Part shown: piece by piece, positions 1,601 to 8,379 of the stretch | How the letters are laid out: the number at the start of each line of letters is the position of its first letter | How positions within the stretch are numbered: the stretch's first letter is position 1 | Assembly: GCA_026398835.1 (NCBI GenBank) | Contig: JAPLSD010000745.1 | Coordinates: 1-11,526 of the forward strand | Length of the DNA stretch: 11,526 bases | Direction: 5' to 3' | Source of the DNA: Pseudomonas sp. | Lineage (GTDB): Bacteria; Pseudomonadota; Gammaproteobacteria; Pseudomonadales; Pseudomonadaceae | Translations under genes and position numbers: made by a program | Notes under the pieces: model-generated | Seen by the model: the letters and a program-made list of their open reading frames with translations, nothing else | Databases searched by the model: none | Told to the model about the DNA's origin: nothing

Positions 1601-1704
1601 CTACACTCTTGGACGAATGCCTGATGTGCCAACACTTCAGAAGCCCTCAAGGTATTCGCAGTACATAAGGGCTAATGAACTGGCTCCATAAAAAAAACAA
1701 TGTC

Positions 1705-1710
1705 GAGGAA
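1705..1710 (+). promoter_or_regulatory. Ribosome binding site that fixes the aatJ start
   Basis: GAGGAA sits six bases before ATG 1717. The in-frame upstream ATG at 1675 has no comparable site and would place a charged 14-residue extension before the signal peptide. Confidence 0.8.
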
Positions 1711-1716
1711 AATTTG

Positions 1717-2631
1717 ATGCGTATCGTTCCCAATCTTCTGGGCGCAGCAATCGCTGTTGCTCTGATTAGCACTCCAGTTTTCGCAGCCGAACTCACCGGC
1801 ACACTGAAGAAAATCAAAGAGTCCGGCACCATCACCCTCGGACATCGCGACGCGTCCATTCCGTTTTCCTACATCGCAGACGCTTCCGGCAAACCGGTCG
1901 GCTACTCACACGATATTCAACTGAAAATCGTCGAAGCCATCAAAAAAGACCTGGACATGCCGACCCTCAACGTCAAGTACAACCTGGTCACTTCGCAAAC
2001 CCGTATCCCGCTGGTGCAGAACGGCACCGTGGACGTGGAATGCGGCTCCACCACCAACAACGTCGAGCGTCAGCAGCAAGTTGACTTCTCCGTCGGCATC
2101 TTCGAAATCGGCACCAAGCTGCTGACCAAAAAAGACTCCGTGTACAAAGACTTCGCTGACCTCAAAGGCAAAAACGTCGTCACCACCGCCGGCACCACGT
2201 CCGAGCGCATCCTGAAGTCGATGAACGCCGACAAGCAGATGGGCATGAACGTCATCTCCGCCAAAGACCACGGCGAGTCCTTCCAGATGCTGGAAAGCGG
2301 CCGTGCCGTTGCCTTCATGATGGACGACGCGCTGCTCGCCGGTGAAATGGCCAAGGCCAAGAAGCCGACTGACTGGGCCGTGACCGGCACTCCACAGTCG
2401 TTTGAAATCTACGGCTGCATGGTCCGCAAGGGCGACGAGCCGTTCAAGAAAGCCGTCGACGACGCCATCATCGCGACCTACAAGTCCGGCGAAATCAACA
2501 AGATCTACGAAAAGTGGTTCATGCAGCCAATCCCGCCAAAGGGCCTGAACCTGATGTTCCCGATGAGCGAAGAGCTCAAGGCATTGATCGCCAACCCGAC
2601 AGACAAAGCGGCTGACGAAAAGAAATCCTGA
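1717..2631 (+). CDS. aatJ: Periplasmic glutamate/aspartate-binding protein of ABC importer
   Basis: Solute-binding component of the acidic amino acid importer (family 3, SBP_bac_3; GltI/AatJ type), 304 residues. It captures glutamate/aspartate in the periplasm and delivers them to the AatQM permease. Residues 1-23 form a clear Sec signal peptide: Arg near the start, a hydrophobic core, and VFA before AE, the likely cleavage site. The mature start, GTLKKIKESGTITLGHRDASIPFSY, is typical of the family, as are the VECGSTTNN segment and the C-terminal MFPMSEELKALI. ATG 1717 is chosen for its ribosome site and signal peptide. It is the first gene after the sigma-54 promoter. The 193-bp gap to aatQ holds a strong hairpin, which may give more binding protein than permease. 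Substrate is inferred from family and operon; glutamine or asparagine may also bind. Confidence 0.93.
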   Translation: MRIVPNLLGAAIAVALISTPVFAAELTGTLKKIKESGTITLGHRDASIPFSYIADASGKPVGYSHDIQLKIVEAIKKDLDMPTLNVKYNLVTSQTRIPLVQNGTVDVECGSTTNNVERQQQVDFSVGIFEIGTKLLTKKDSVYKDFADLKGKNVVTTAGTTSERILKSMNADKQMGMNVISAKDHGESFQMLESGRAVAFMMDDALLAGEMAKAKKPTDWAVTGTPQSFEIYGCMVRKGDEPFKKAVDDAIIATYKSGEINKIYEKWFMQPIPPKGLNLMFPMSEELKALIANPTDKAADEKKS

Positions 2632-2824: not shown

Positions 2825-3571
2825 ATGAATTACAACTGGGACTGGGGCGTGTTCTTCAAGTCCACCGGCGTGGGCAGCGAGACTTATCTCGACTGGTTCA
2901 TCGCAGGTTTGGGCTGGACCATCGCTATCGCCGTGGTGGCCTGGATTGTCGCCTTGCTGCTGGGCTCGGTGCTCGGCGTCATGCGGACCGTACCGAATCG
3001 TCTAGTATCGGGTATCGCCACCGTCTACGTGGAAATCTTCCGTAACGTGCCGCTGCTGGTTCAGCTGTTCATCTGGTACTTCCTGGTGCCGGACATGCTG
3101 CCGGAGAACCTGCAGGAGTGGTACAAGCAGGACCTCAACCCGACCACCTCGGCCTATCTGAGCGTTGTCGTGTGTCTGGGCCTGTTCACCGCCGCACGGG
3201 TCTGTGAACAAGTGCGTACCGGCATCCAGGCGCTGCCTCGCGGCCAGGAATCTGCCGCTCGCGCCATGGGCTTCAAGCTGCCGCAGGTTTACTGGAACGT
3301 GCTGCTGCCCCAGGCCTACCGGATCATCATTCCGCCGCTCACCTCGGAATTTCTCAACGTCTTCAAGAACTCCTCCGTGGCCTCGCTGATCGGCCTGATG
3401 GAGCTGCTCGCGCAGACTAAACAGACCGCCGAGTTCTCCGCCAACCTGTTCGAGGCCTTCACCCTGGCCACCTTGATCTACTTCACCCTGAACATGAGCC
3501 TGATGCTGCTGATGCGTATGGTAGAGAAGAAAGTCTCAGTGCCCGGCCTGATCTCCGTGGGGGGTAAATAA
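2825..3571 (+). CDS. aatQ: Acidic amino acid ABC transporter permease AatQ (GltJ type)
   Basis: One of two inner-membrane permeases of the glutamate/aspartate importer, 248 residues, the usual size for HisMQ-type permeases (BPD_transp_1). A hydrophobic segment near residues 25-52 begins the transmembrane core. The cytoplasmic EAA loop that docks on the ATPase is visible as GQESAARAMGF at about 140-150, after EQVRTGIQALPR. ATG 2825 is preceded by an AGGGGGAG ribosome site (2811-2818). A longer reading from GTG 2792 would lack this support. The stop TAA (3569-3571) overlaps the aatM start by one base (TAATG), so the two permeases are translationally coupled and should be made in equal amounts. 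Confidence 0.93.
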   Translation: MNYNWDWGVFFKSTGVGSETYLDWFIAGLGWTIAIAVVAWIVALLLGSVLGVMRTVPNRLVSGIATVYVEIFRNVPLLVQLFIWYFLVPDMLPENLQEWYKQDLNPTTSAYLSVVVCLGLFTAARVCEQVRTGIQALPRGQESAARAMGFKLPQVYWNVLLPQAYRIIIPPLTSEFLNVFKNSSVASLIGLMELLAQTKQTAEFSANLFEAFTLATLIYFTLNMSLMLLMRMVEKKVSVPGLISVGGK

Positions 3572-4242
3572 TGGACTTCGATTTCAGTGGAATCGTCCAG
3601 GCCACACCGGGCCTGTGGAACGGCATGATGATGACCCTCAAGCTGATGGCCCTGGGCGTCTCCGGCGGGATCATCCTCGGCACGATCCTGGCGCTGATGC
3701 GCCTGTCCCACAATAAGCTGCTGTCGAACATTGCCGGCGCCTACGTTAACTACTTCCGCTCGATCCCGCTGCTGCTGGTCATCACCTGGTTCTACCTGGC
3801 GGTGCCGTTCGTACTGCGCTGGATCACCGGCGAAGACACCCCGATCGGCGCGTTCGCCTCGTGCATCGTGGCCTTCATGATGTTCGAAGCGGCCTACTTC
3901 TGCGAAATCGTCCGGGCTGGCGTGCAGTCGATCCCCAAAGGCCAGATGGGTGCTGCCCAGGCGTTGGGTATGAGTTACGCCCAGATGATGCGGTTGATCA
4001 TCCTGCCGCAAGCGTTCCGCAAGATGACCCCGCTGCTGCTGCAACAGAGCATTATCCTGTTTCAGGACACCTCGCTGGTCTACGCGGTCGGTCTCGTGGA
4101 TTTCCTCAATGCTTCGCGCGCCAGTGGCGACATCATCGGCCGCTCCAATGAGTTCCTGGTCTTCGCAGGTCTGGTGTATTTTATAATCAGCTTTGCCGCC
4201 TCGCAGCTGGTCAAGCGTCTACAAAAAAGGTTTGCCGTATGA
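3571..4242 (+). CDS. aatM: Acidic amino acid ABC transporter permease AatM (GltK type)
   Basis: Second permease of the importer, 223 residues, a partner of AatQ in the membrane heterodimer. Hydrophobic helices include residues about 20-44, 69-85 and 97-110. The ATPase-contacting EAA loop reads [11 protein letters not shown] at about 124-134, preceded by [13 protein letters not shown]. The segment [15 protein letters not shown] is typical of polar amino acid permeases. It starts at ATG 3571, inside the aatQ stop, and its own TGA (4240-4242) overlaps the aatP ATG by four bases (ATGA), so all three genes are coupled. No sequence abnormality was seen. Confidence 0.93.
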
Positions 4243-4973
4243 TCTCTATCAAGAACGTCAACAAGTGGTATGGCGACTTCCAGGTACTGACTGATTGCAG
4301 CACCGAGGTCAAAAAAGGCGAAGTGATCGTGGTGTGCGGGCCGTCTGGCTCCGGCAAATCCACCCTGATCAAATGCGTCAATGCCCTGGAACCGTTCCAG
4401 AAAGGCGACGTGGTGGTCGATGGCACCTCCATCGCTGACCCGAAGACCGACCTGCCGAAACTGCGCTCGCGGGTCGGCATGGTGTTCCAGCATTTCGAAC
4501 TGTTCCCGCACCTGAGCATCATCGATAACTTGACCATCGCACAAATCAAGGTGCTGGGCCGCAGCAAGGAAGAAGCCACCAAAAAAGCCCTGCAACTGCT
4601 TGAGCGGGTCGGTCTCTCCGCCCACGCCAGCAAGCACCCGGGCCAGCTTTCTGGTGGTCAGCAACAGCGTGTGGCGATTGCCCGTGCGCTGGCGATGGAC
4701 CCGATCGTCATGCTGTTCGACGAACCGACCTCGGCGCTCGACCCGGAAATGGTCAACGAAGTACTCGATGTGATGGTGCAACTGGCCCACGAAGGCATGA
4801 CCATGATGTGCGTGACCCACGAAATGGGCTTCGCCCGTAAAGTGGCGGACCGGGTGATCTTCATGGACCAGGGCAAGATCATCGAAGACTGCAAGAAAGA
4901 AGAGTTCTTCGGTGATATCAATGCCCGCTCCGACCGTGCCCAGCACTTCCTCGAGAAGATTTTGCAGCACTAA
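4239..4973 (+). CDS. aatP: Acidic amino acid ABC transporter ATP-binding protein AatP (GltL type)
   Basis: ATPase that powers the importer from the cytoplasmic face, 244 residues, the normal length for GltL/HisP/GlnQ proteins. All motifs are intact: aromatic Y11, Walker [10 protein letters not shown] at 34-42, Q-loop Gln84, signature [15 protein letters not shown] at 137-151, Walker B VMLFDE at 157-162, D-loop SALD at 165-168 and switch His194. The start overlaps the aatM stop by four bases. It is the last gene of the aat operon proper. The 208 bp that follow hold a REP doublet rather than a classical terminator, so limited read-through into aauS is possible. Confidence 0.95.
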
Positions 4974-5009
4974 GAACCGGCACCGCTCCCATAGCTAGCA
5001 AAGCGCTTT

Positions 5010-5023
5010 GTGGGAGCGGGCTT
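5010..5023 (+). repeat. Truncated REP copy
   Basis: GTGGGAGCGGGCTT equals the first 14 bases of the full REP starting at 5026 and lies immediately before it in the same orientation. It looks like the remnant of a third copy or of a slippage event at the edge of the doublet. Confidence 0.7.
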
Positions 5024-5025
5024 TG

Positions 5026-5113
5026 GTGGGAGCGGGCTTGCCCGCGAAAGCGATCTTCGCCCCGGCCTATGCATTGGCTGAGATGACGTCTTCGCGGGCA
5101 AGCCCGCTCCCAC
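5026..5113. repeat. Inverted pair of Pseudomonas REP elements (REPIN-like)
   Basis: A 23-base REP (GTGGGAGCGGGCTTGCCCGCGAA start, 5026-5048) recurs as a perfect reverse complement at 5091-5113, with a 42-base spacer. Each REP contains its own small palindrome (GCGGGCTTGCCCGC), and the pair can fold into a long hairpin. Inverted REP doublets (REPINs), mobilised by RAYT transposases acting in trans, are known in fluorescens-group Pseudomonas. No RAYT gene is in the window. Sitting between aatP and aauS, the pair could stabilise the aat message or block transcription. Confidence 0.9.
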
Positions 5114-5144
5114 AGGTTATGAGTACATCCCGAAAGTATTTCCC

Positions 5145-5166
5145 GGAGGAAATGCAATCTGGTTGA
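5145..5166 (+). other. Strong Shine-Dalgarno with a four-codon minimal ORF
   Basis: GGAGGA (5145-5150) is the best ribosome site before aauS, but the nearest start, ATG 5152, opens only four codons before TGA 5164. The aauS ATG lies 31 bases beyond the site, too far for direct use. Either the minimal ORF acts as a leader that passes ribosomes on, or the aauS start region is itself altered. Confidence 0.4.
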
Positions 5167-5181
5167 CCCAAGGCATCTGTG

Positions 5182-7057
5182 ATGAAATGCGACCCCACTC
5201 TCTATCGCGCCGCGCCGCCATCACTCGCCGTGAAACCCCGCCTGATTCGCCATCTGTTCCTGCCTCCACTGATCATCCTGTTGATGATCGGTTTGGGTTA
5301 TGTCGGCTTCTGGGTCAGCGAGCACTACGGGATTCGTACCCTCAGCGAGAACGGCGAACGTCAGTTGGAACTGCACGCCCGCGCCGTCGAAAGCGAGATC
5401 AGCAAATACACCTACCTGCCCAGCCTGCTGGAGCTCGAGTCCAGCGTCTCGAAGCTGCTGGCCGACCCGTCCCCGGAAAACCGGCAGACGGTCAATGATT
5501 ACCTCGAAGGCCTGAACCGGCGCAGCCGCAGTCGGGCCATCTACATTATGGATACCACCGGCCGGGTGATGGCCACCAGTAACTGGCGCGACTTCGACAG
5601 TTATTTGGGCGAAGACCTGTCCTTCCGTGCCTATTTCCAGAACGCCGTGCGTGGCCAGCCAGGGCGTTTCTATGGCATCGGCAGCACCAGCGGCGAACCC
5701 GGCTATTACCTGGCCCACGGCCTGGAAGAGCAAGGCAAGATCATCGGTGTCGCAGTGGTCAAAGTGCGCCTCGAAGCCATGGAAGATCGCTGGCAACGGG
5801 CACGTCTGGAAGCCTTTGTCAGTGACGAAAACGGCATCATCATCCTCTCCAGTGACCCCTCACGACGGCTAAAATCAGTCCGCCCGCTCAGTGATGAAAC
5901 CAAGGAGCGGCTGGCGCGCAGCCTGCAGTATTACTGGTTCCCGCTCAACGAACTGCAACCGCTGGCCCGCGAACATCTGGCCGAAGGCGTAGAGAAACTG
6001 ACCTTCCCGGCCAACACCGAACTGGTGTCGGATGAAAAGGAAATCAGTTACCTGTCGCAGACCCGGCCGCTGAGCGATACGCCGTGGAACTTCACCCTGC
6101 TGACGCCCCTGCAAGACCTGCGGCGCGAAGCCATCAATCAGGGGATTCTGGTGGCCGTGGCCTTCGCCTTGGTCGCGTTTTTGCTGATTGCCTGGAACGA
6201 ACGGCGCAAGGTCATCGCCACCCGCCTCGCCGCCCGCGAAGCCCTGCAAGAAGCCAACAACCAGTTGGAGCGCAAGATCGCCGAACGCACGGCCGACCGG
6301 CCAGATCCGCGAGCGACGGCAAGCCGAAGAAACCTTGCGCCGCGCCCAGGACGAATTGGTGCAGGCCGGCAAGCTGGCAGCCATCGGCCAAATGTCCACC
6401 AGCATTGCCCATGAACTGAACCAGCCGCTGGCGGCCCTGCGCACGCTGTCGGGCAATACCGTGCGCTTCCTGGAGCGCGGCGCGCTGGACACTGCCAGTG
6501 CCAACCTCAAAACCATCAACGAGCTGATCGACCGCATGGGTCGCATCACCGCGAGCTTGCGTTCCTTCGCCCGCCGCGGCGATGACCTGGGCCAGGCCAG
6601 CCTCGGCAAAGCCGTCGACGCCGCCTTGCAGTTACTCGGCAGCCGTCTGGAAAGCAGTGAACTGCAACTGCACCGCGATTTCAGTGACGTGCAGGTGCAG
6701 ATCGATCAAACCCGTCTGGAGCAGATTCTGGTCAACTTGATCGGCAATGCACTGGATGCCATGCAGGCGCAGCCGCAGCCCGAATTGTGGCTGGAAGGCG
6801 AAACCGTCGACGGCAAATACCGTCTGCGGGTGCGGGACAACGGCCACGGCATCGACGCCGAGACGCGCAAGCATTTGTTTGAACCCTTCTTCACCACCAA
6901 ACCCGGCGAACAGGGACTGGGCCTCGGCCTGACCTTGTCGGCGAGCCTGGCAGCCGCTACCGGCGGCAATCTGGGCGTCGAACACCCGGCCAGCGGTGGT
7001 ACCGCCTTCGTCCTCAGTTTACCGTTGGTAAGCCCCCTTCAAGCCGAGCCAATATGA
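5182..7057 (+). pseudogene. aauS: Frameshifted sensor histidine kinase AauS (acidic amino acid sensing)
   Basis: Membrane sensor kinase of the DctB/AauS type, partner of AauR. The first frame (from ATG 5182; GTG 5179 and GTG 5230 also possible) encodes a transmembrane segment near residues 25-45, a periplasmic sensor region of about 270 residues (probably double-Cache), a second transmembrane segment near 321-340 and a helix ending IAERTAD (D372 at 6295-6297). It then reads nonsense to a stop at 6412-6414. The rest of the kinase continues in another frame from about 6299 (GQIRERRQAEET). It carries the phospho-acceptor His in IAHELNQP (codon 6410-6412), N-box NLIGNALDAM, DNGHGID, FEPFFTTK and GLGLGLTLS, ending at TGA 7055-7057. 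No good start serves the second part. The join fits a 26-base deletion of about nine signalling-helix residues. Sensor and catalytic halves are thus separated, unless the break is a sequence error. Confidence 0.88.
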
Positions 7058-8379
7058 ACAACGACCTTACCGTGCTGATCGTCGAAGACGATCCCCATGT
7101 CCTGCTCGGCTGCCAGCAAGCCCTGACCCTGGAAGATATTCCCTGCATTGGCGTCGGCAGCGCCGAGGAAGCCCTGGCGCAAGTCGGCGACAATTTCGCC
7201 GGGATCGTCATCAGCGACATTCGCTTGCCAGGCATCGATGGCCTGGAATTGCTGACCCGCCTCAAGGCCCGCGATCGCAGTCTGCCGGTAGTGCTGATCA
7301 CCGGCCATGGCGACATCTCCATGGCGGTGGGCGCCATGCAAAAAGGCGCATATGACTTCATGGAGAAACCCTTCTCCCCCGAGCGTCTGGTGGACGTGGC
7401 CCGGCGTGCGCTGGAACAGCGCAGCCTGGCTCGGGAAGTCTGGTCACTGCGTCGACAACTGGCCGAGCGCGACTCGCTGGAAGGCCGGATCATCGGTCGC
7501 TCTCCGGCCATGCAGAACCTGCGCGAGCTGATCGCCAACGTCGCCGACACCTCGGCCAACGTGTTGATCGAAGGCGAGACCGGTACCGGCAAGGAACTGG
7601 TCGCGCGCTGCCTGCATGATTTTAGTCGCCGCCAGTCTCAGCAATTTGTCGCACTGAACTGCGGCGGTCTGCCGGAGAACCTGTTCGAAAGCGAAATCTT
7701 CGGCCATGAAGCCAACGCCTTCACGGGTGCCGGTAAACGACGGATCGGCAAGATCGAACACGCCCACGGTGGCACGCTGTTCCTCGATGAAGTGGAAAGC
7801 ATGCCGCTGAATCTGCAGATCAAACTGCTGCGGGTGTTGCAGGAGCGCACCCTGGAACGCCTCGGCTCGAACCAGAGCGTCGCCGTCGACTGCCGAGTGA
7901 TTGCGGCGACCAAGTCCGACCTGGATGAGTTGAGCAAGGCCAGTCAGTTCCGCAGCGACCTGTATTACCGCCTGAACGTGGTGACCCTGGAACTGCCGCC
8001 GCTGCGCGAACGCCGCGAAGACATCCTGCAATTGTTCGAACACTTCCTGCAGCAGTCGTCCCTGCGCTTTGACCGCACGCTGCCTGCACTGGACAACCAG
8101 ACCCTGTCGAACCTGATGAGCCATGACTGGCCAGGTAATGTGCGCGAGTTGCGCAACGTCGCCGAACGTTTCGCCCTTGGCCTGCCGGCCTTCAAAAAGT
8201 CCGGTAATAACGCCAGCCAAGGCTTGGGGTTTGCCGAGGCGGTCGAAGCTTTCGAGCGCAACCTGCTCAACGACGCCTTGCAGCGCAGCGGCGGCAACCT
8301 GACTCAGGCCAGCCTGGAATTGGGAATGGCCAAGACCACGCTGTTCGACAAGGTCAAGAAATACGGACTGAGCCACTAA
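7054..8379 (+). CDS. aauR: Sigma-54-dependent response regulator AauR
   Basis: NtrC/DctD-type activator, 441 residues, that turns on the aat operon through RNA polymerase-sigma-54. The receiver domain (about 1-125) has the acidic pocket E11-D12-D13, phospho-acceptor Asp55 in SDIRLPG, Thr83 and Lys105. The AAA+ domain has Walker A GETGTGKE at 174-181 and Walker B GGTLFLDE at 239-246. The sigma-54 contact loop reads N221-AFTGA, where GAFTGA is the norm. The C-terminal Fis-type helix-turn-helix (about 406-441, GGNLTQASLELGMAKTTLFDKV) binds DNA. The ATG overlaps the aauS stop by four bases (ATGA), so translation is coupled to the kinase's second frame. Ribosomes in the first aauS frame stop at 6414, about 640 bases upstream, so the frameshift may also lower AauR supply. 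Expected targets are the palindromes at 1464-1508. Confidence 0.93.
   Translation: MNNDLTVLIVEDDPHVLLGCQQALTLEDIPCIGVGSAEEALAQVGDNFAGIVISDIRLPGIDGLELLTRLKARDRSLPVVLITGHGDISMAVGAMQKGAYDFMEKPFSPERLVDVARRALEQRSLAREVWSLRRQLAERDSLEGRIIGRSPAMQNLRELIANVADTSANVLIEGETGTGKELVARCLHDFSRRQSQQFVALNCGGLPENLFESEIFGHEANAFTGAGKRRIGKIEHAHGGTLFLDEVESMPLNLQIKLLRVLQERTLERLGSNQSVAVDCRVIAATKSDLDELSKASQFRSDLYYRLNVVTLELPPLRERREDILQLFEHFLQQSSLRFDRTLPALDNQTLSNLMSHDWPGNVRELRNVAERFALGLPAFKKSGNNASQGLGFAEAVEAFERNLLNDALQRSGGNLTQASLELGMAKTTLFDKVKKYGLSH

What the first reader, a model, noticed from the sequence alone, without database searches (positions are those of the whole stretch)
6290..6302. aauS is split by a frameshift that fits a 26-bp deletion in the signalling helix
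Seen: the kinase reads well in one frame to IAERTAD (D372 ends at 6297) and resumes in another from GQIRERRQAEET at 6299. DctB-like kinases usually have about nine more residues here, as in ERTADLRxxNERLxx. Restoring a segment ending in ...CTGACC gives two GACC copies 26 bp apart; deletion between them gives the observed GCCGACCGGCCAG and the observed frame change. So this is probably a real slippage deletion, not a single-base read error. It separates the sensor from the His kinase and should uncouple acidic amino acid sensing from AauR.
Basis: partly seen in the sequence, partly recalled or inferred. Interest (0 to 1): 0.72.

Follow-up and report, generated by a model that had tools for sequence, protein, structure and literature searches.

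The report
Broken amino-acid sensor gene, 26-base deletion
In one fragmentary Pseudomonas genome the gene for a sensor of acidic amino acids lacks 26 bases in its middle, which cuts the sensing part off from the signalling part; it looks like an ordinary, recent gene loss in a well-known system.

Summary
aauS (5182-7057) reads in one frame to D372 (6297) and in another from 6299. All 134 relatives aligned carry exactly 26 more bases there, encoding nine nearly invariant residues just after the ERT signature of the signalling helix; 133 of 134 have no early stop.

The exact 17-base junction was listed for no other genome of 398.

On this lineage the kinase half has 2 amino-acid against 27 silent changes, so the deletion is recent or not fixed. 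The genome is an 881-contig, 74%-complete draft, yet a frame detector finds no excess of frame breaks in a 488-kb sample. No reads were available.

Best reading: a recent loss-of-function deletion that parts sensor from kinase and probably also lowers AauR, whose start overlaps the aauS stop. Ordinary; low interest.

The parts
5182..6414 (+). sensor half of aauS: Cache sensor and membrane part, correct frame to D372 (6297), then 38 residues in the wrong frame
   Evidence: dCache_1 61.6 bits; solved DctB sensor domains match
6297..6299 (+). deletion junction; relatives have 26 more bases between 6298 and 6299
   Evidence: 134 of 134 relatives
6299..7057 (+). kinase half of aauS in the other frame: HisKA and HATPase_c
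   Evidence: as ORF 6188-7057; one search prints the translation with its phospho-acceptor region
6356..6361 (+). possible internal starts TTG 6356 and GTG 6359 for a free kinase half, behind AGGA at 6348-6351
   Evidence: sequence only
7054..8379 (+). aauR, sigma-54 response regulator; its ATG overlaps the aauS stop (ATGA 7054-7057)
   Evidence: Response_reg, Sigma54_activat, HTH_8; ATGA overlap in 118 of 118 relatives that reach the stop
1675..2631 (+). aatJ, glutamate/aspartate-binding protein (a second ATG in frame lies at 1717)
   Evidence: NCBIfam NF008063, 405.7 bits, cut-off 375
2825..3571 (+). aatQ, permease
   Evidence: TIGR01726 above its cut-off; gene name by order, recalled
3571..4242 (+). 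aatM, permease
   Evidence: TIGR01726 above its cut-off; gene name by order, recalled
4239..4973 (+). aatP, ATP-binding protein
   Evidence: best NCBIfam match GlnQ, 315.6 bits, below its cut-off of 379; gene name by order, recalled

Best explanation
A recent 26-base deletion, not made by slippage on a direct repeat, has split aauS within its signalling helix. The cell would make a membrane-bound Cache sensor ending in 38 foreign residues, and little or no kinase tied to it. AauR is then not phosphorylated in answer to glutamate or aspartate, and is probably also translated less because ribosomes stop 640 bases before its coupled start. Shown: the split, its size, open frames in relatives, no repeats at the edges, constraint on both halves before the event. 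Inferred: that the deletion exists in the organism, loss of kinase output, lower AauR, weaker induction of aatJ-aatQMP.
For: 26 bases missing against 134 of 134 relatives, 133 of them without an early stop. Nine lost residues identical in 117 of 134 and one substitution away in 17. Changes on the window lineage: 5 amino-acid to 38 silent (sensor half) and 2 to 27 (kinase half), 11 differing codons in each half unpolarised; dN/dS against L035 0.073 and 0.040. Frame detector: 4 calls in 487,913 bases of 101 own contigs including this one, 4 in 400,000 bases of G351. Deleting the signalling helix region of yeast Sln1p abolished kinase activity (passage of PMC1592074). aauR or aauS mutants grow poorly on or do not use acidic amino acids in P. 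aeruginosa, P. putida and P. syringae (passages of PMC7962211, PMC10595159, PMC7386598).
Against: No reads were available. The genome is a fragmentary, incomplete draft, and whole-genome data of the same species were not found: the best listed sensor hit is 93% identical. The strong constraint on both halves is also what an artefact would show. An internal start could still yield kinase. The detector found only 18 of 60 simulated single-base losses, so the frame-break rates are lower bounds.
Confidence: 0.7

Rival explanations
1. The deletion is an artefact of the draft assembly, or a rare or chimeric variant that became the consensus; the organism has an unbroken aauS.
For: 881 contigs, 73.9% complete, 3.1% contamination; constraint in both halves; no other genome of 398 lists the exact junction.
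Against: No excess of frame breaks in a 488-kb sample of the same draft; the loss is 26 bases with no repeat at its edges that an assembler could collapse; the other genes named in the window have open frames.
Confidence: 0.22
2. The split leaves two working proteins: a sensor without output and a free kinase half, started at TTG 6356 or GTG 6359, that phosphorylates AauR without a signal.
For: AGGA stands 4 and 7 bases before these codons and the codon at 6356 is CTG in the five commonest relative variants; the kinase half keeps HisKA and HATPase_c and was constrained. A protein made of the kinase half only is predicted on another public contig, P0126.
Against: Weak start codons, no measured translation; deletion of the signalling helix cost Sln1p its activity (passage). 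One sigma-70-like site at 5816-5843 against 0.3 expected is no real promoter evidence. The TTG is a silent change that could be drift.
Confidence: 0.05
3. One reading: strand slippage between two GACC copies 26 bases apart.
For: Size and junction fit; GACC stands at the left edge in 114 of 134 relatives.
Against: Block ends in GACC in 0 of 134; last codon Lys in 134 of 134; zero microhomology in 134 of 134. No hairpin help: the 90-base region of L035 folds no better than 196 of 200 shuffles.
Confidence: 0.02

Closest known systems
AauS-AauR two-component system with AatJQMP of Pseudomonas (P. putida, P. aeruginosa, P. syringae)
   Same: Gene order, Cache sensor, HisKA and HATPase_c, sigma-54 response regulator next door; public homologues are named AauS or DctB by their sources
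   Different: Here aauS is split into two frames by a 26-base loss
DctB-type sensor kinases (solved sensor domains 2zbb, 3e4o)
   Same: Sensor half matches over residues 63-310, E 6.9e-29
   Different: Sensor and kinase are not in one frame here
Ordinary frame-breaking lesions of regulators (pseudogenes)
   Same: Single recent frame-breaking lesion in a conserved regulator
   Different: Nothing beyond place and size

Membership tests
AauS (DctB-type sensor histidine kinase) | Periplasmic Cache sensor domain | tested here: met
   PF02743 61.6 bits, cut-off 45; DctB structures
AauS (DctB-type sensor histidine kinase) | HisKA and HATPase_c | tested here: met
   PF00512 31.9 bits (cut-off 26.9) and PF02518 82.3 bits (cut-off 26.4), in the other frame
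AauS (DctB-type sensor histidine kinase) | Sensor and kinase in one polypeptide | tested here: not met
   Frame change at 6297/6299; 133 of 134 relatives have no early stop
AauS (DctB-type sensor histidine kinase) | Next to aatJQMP and aauR | tested here: met
AauS (DctB-type sensor histidine kinase) | Responds to glutamate and aspartate | not testable with these tools
Slippage deletion between direct repeats | Direct repeat at both edges of the lost block in the intact form | tested here: not met
   0 of 134 relatives with the second GACC, microhomology zero in 134 of 134; the direct ancestor itself is not available

The most novel reading that the evidence does not exclude
The deletion turned one sensor kinase into two proteins: a silent membrane sensor and a soluble kinase started internally, giving constant, signal-independent AauR activity and acidic amino acid uptake.
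Probability: 0.05. Interest if true: 0.4.

Novelty: new member of a known kind. Interest (0 to 1): 0.14.

Why it matters
If real, this organism would be a natural aauS mutant and a small case of a pseudomonad losing a conserved nutrient sensor. It teaches little that gene knock-outs have not shown. The useful lesson is one of method: the size of the deletion was predicted correctly from one sequence, its mechanism was not.

Tried and rejected
GACC slippage: not supported. Hairpin-aided deletion: the 90-base region of L035 folds no better than 196 of 200 shuffles. Single-base sequencing error: rejected, 26 bases against 134 of 134 relatives.

Generally indel-rich draft: not seen. The detector gave 4 calls in 487,913 bases of 101 own contigs (window included; 100 of the other 880 contigs were taken, two of them cut at 20 kb) and 4 in 400,000 bases of G351. 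Two of the three other own calls have only 35 bases of open old frame; the third (L188) overlaps several open frames and was not resolved. A first version of the detector reported no jump at all, not even this one, because of its penalties, and was replaced; the thresholds of the second were set by me without a separate training set.

Shared deletion in relatives: the exact 17-base junction is listed only for G000 of 398 genomes; 53 of 398 have a match with up to one mismatch, and these places were not examined one by one. Of 150 loci held, only L001, the window itself, has the 22-base junction. The aauS matches of the other genus genomes beyond the fetched loci were not read (one search lists only its best).

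Same-species intact protein: best listed sensor-half hit 93% identical, 120 of 1396 hits listed, database clustered at 90%, so closer members may be hidden.

Broken aauS elsewhere: L085 has two one-base gaps against L035, which looks like read error. L029 holds a run of unread bases with a repeated stretch, an assembly scar. Rows dropped before the count of 134 (of 141 loci other than the window): L029, L033 and L034 (alignment too short or not from base 1) and L002-L005 (other places of the same genome). The 134 hold 126 distinct sequences.

Internal promoter for the kinase half: one sigma-70-like site, one terminator-like site, neither clearly above shuffles.

Papers: passages only of PMC7962211, PMC7386598, PMC10595159 and PMC1592074; otherwise search listings. 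The search for aauS with frameshift listed 7 papers, none on this subject by title.

Full report
The window is contig C857 of a draft Pseudomonas genome (3.83 Mb, 881 contigs, 73.9% complete, 3.1% contamination). It carries aatJ, aatQ, aatM, aatP, aauS and aauR in that order (the names of the permeases and the ATPase are by order and recalled). The sensor half matches dCache_1 and solved DctB sensor domains; the kinase half matches HisKA and HATPase_c; the next gene is a sigma-54 response regulator. Public homologues of the sensor are named AauS or DctB by their sources.

From the ATG at 5182 the gene reads to D372, whose codon ends at 6297; from 6299 the reading continues in another frame as GQIRERRQAEET. 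The sensor frame then runs into a stop at 6412-6414. A frame detector that uses codon usage only finds the jump at 6295, so the break does not rest on homology alone.

Against 134 gene copies from relatives (126 distinct; 7 of 141 loci left out as named in Tried and rejected), the window lacks exactly 26 bases between 6298 and 6299 in every comparison. 133 of the 134 have no early stop; L085 is broken elsewhere. The nearest relative is P. fluorescens PS691 (L035, 92.0% identical outside gaps). The lost block encodes nine residues, the same nine in 117 of 134 and one substitution away in 17, next to ERT in 129 and DRT in 5. Passages of PMC1592074 describe the ERT signature of the signalling helix, its proposed role in preventing constitutive activation, and the loss of Sln1p kinase activity when the helix region is deleted.

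The missing block would have to end in GACC; it does so in 0 of 134. It ends in a lysine codon in 134 of 134. Neither edge shows a base of microhomology in any of the 134. GACC stands at the left edge in 114 of 134, and anywhere in the block plus four bases in 11 of 134. The direct ancestor is not available, so it may have differed, but that would need a change at a residue that does not vary among the 134. The nearest relative's sequence has no strong hairpin here. The deletion is best called repeat-independent, cause unknown.

It is recent or not fixed. On the window's lineage, polarised by the other relatives, there are 5 amino-acid to 38 silent changes in the sensor half and 2 to 27 in the kinase half; 11 differing codons in each half could not be polarised. 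Pairwise dN/dS with L035 is 0.073 and 0.040. The exact junction is listed for no other genome of 398.

Artefact or real? There are no reads to inspect. The draft is fragmentary, but in 488 kb of its contigs the detector made 4 calls, this one included, against 4 in 400 kb of G351 (90% identical in aauS); it finds 18 of 60 simulated single-base losses, so these are lower bounds. The loss is not of the homopolymer kind and has no repeats that an assembler could collapse. Constraint on both halves fits a recent deletion and an artefact equally well. I put a real deletion at about three in four in all and an artefact or rare variant at 0.22; these odds are judgement.

Consequence. The sensor would end in 38 foreign residues without kinase. 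The aauS stop overlaps the aauR start as ATGA in the window and in 118 of 118 relatives that reach it, so with ribosomes stopping at 6414, 640 bases upstream, AauR may be made less; this is inference. Passages in PMC7962211, PMC7386598 and PMC10595159 report poor growth on, non-use of, or weak response to acidic amino acids in aauR or aauS mutants; the first tested aauR, not aauS, and found growth on these amino acids as nitrogen source unchanged. A free kinase half from TTG 6356 or GTG 6359, behind AGGA, is possible but has no support beyond sequence; proteins made of the kinase half alone are predicted on other public contigs, for example P0126, though many of those listed lie on short contigs and may just be cut.

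Verdict: a well-observed, probably real, ordinary loss-of-function lesion in a known system. The predicted size was exact; the predicted slippage was not borne out.

Noticed in passing
window 7054-7057: The aauS stop and the aauR start overlap as ATGA, in the window and in 118 of 118 relatives that reach it; suggests translational coupling.
   Followed up: partly
L085 1881-3783: Pseudomonas sp. TH31 has aauS interrupted by two one-base gaps against L035, probably sequencing errors.
   Followed up: partly
L029 about 1400-1575: aauS of an unnamed Pseudomonas (G007) holds a run of unread bases flanked by the same stretch twice, an assembly scar.
   Followed up: partly
protein P0126 (no window coordinates): A 240-residue protein of the AauS kinase half alone, 93% identical, on a 23-kb public contig, cluster of 14: perhaps another split aauS, broken close to the same place.
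   Followed up: partly
window 4974-5178: Between aatP and aauS lie inverted GTGGGAGCGGGCTTGCCCGCGA-like repeats (about 5025-5047 and 5093-5115, seen by eye), of the REP kind (name recalled).
   Followed up: no
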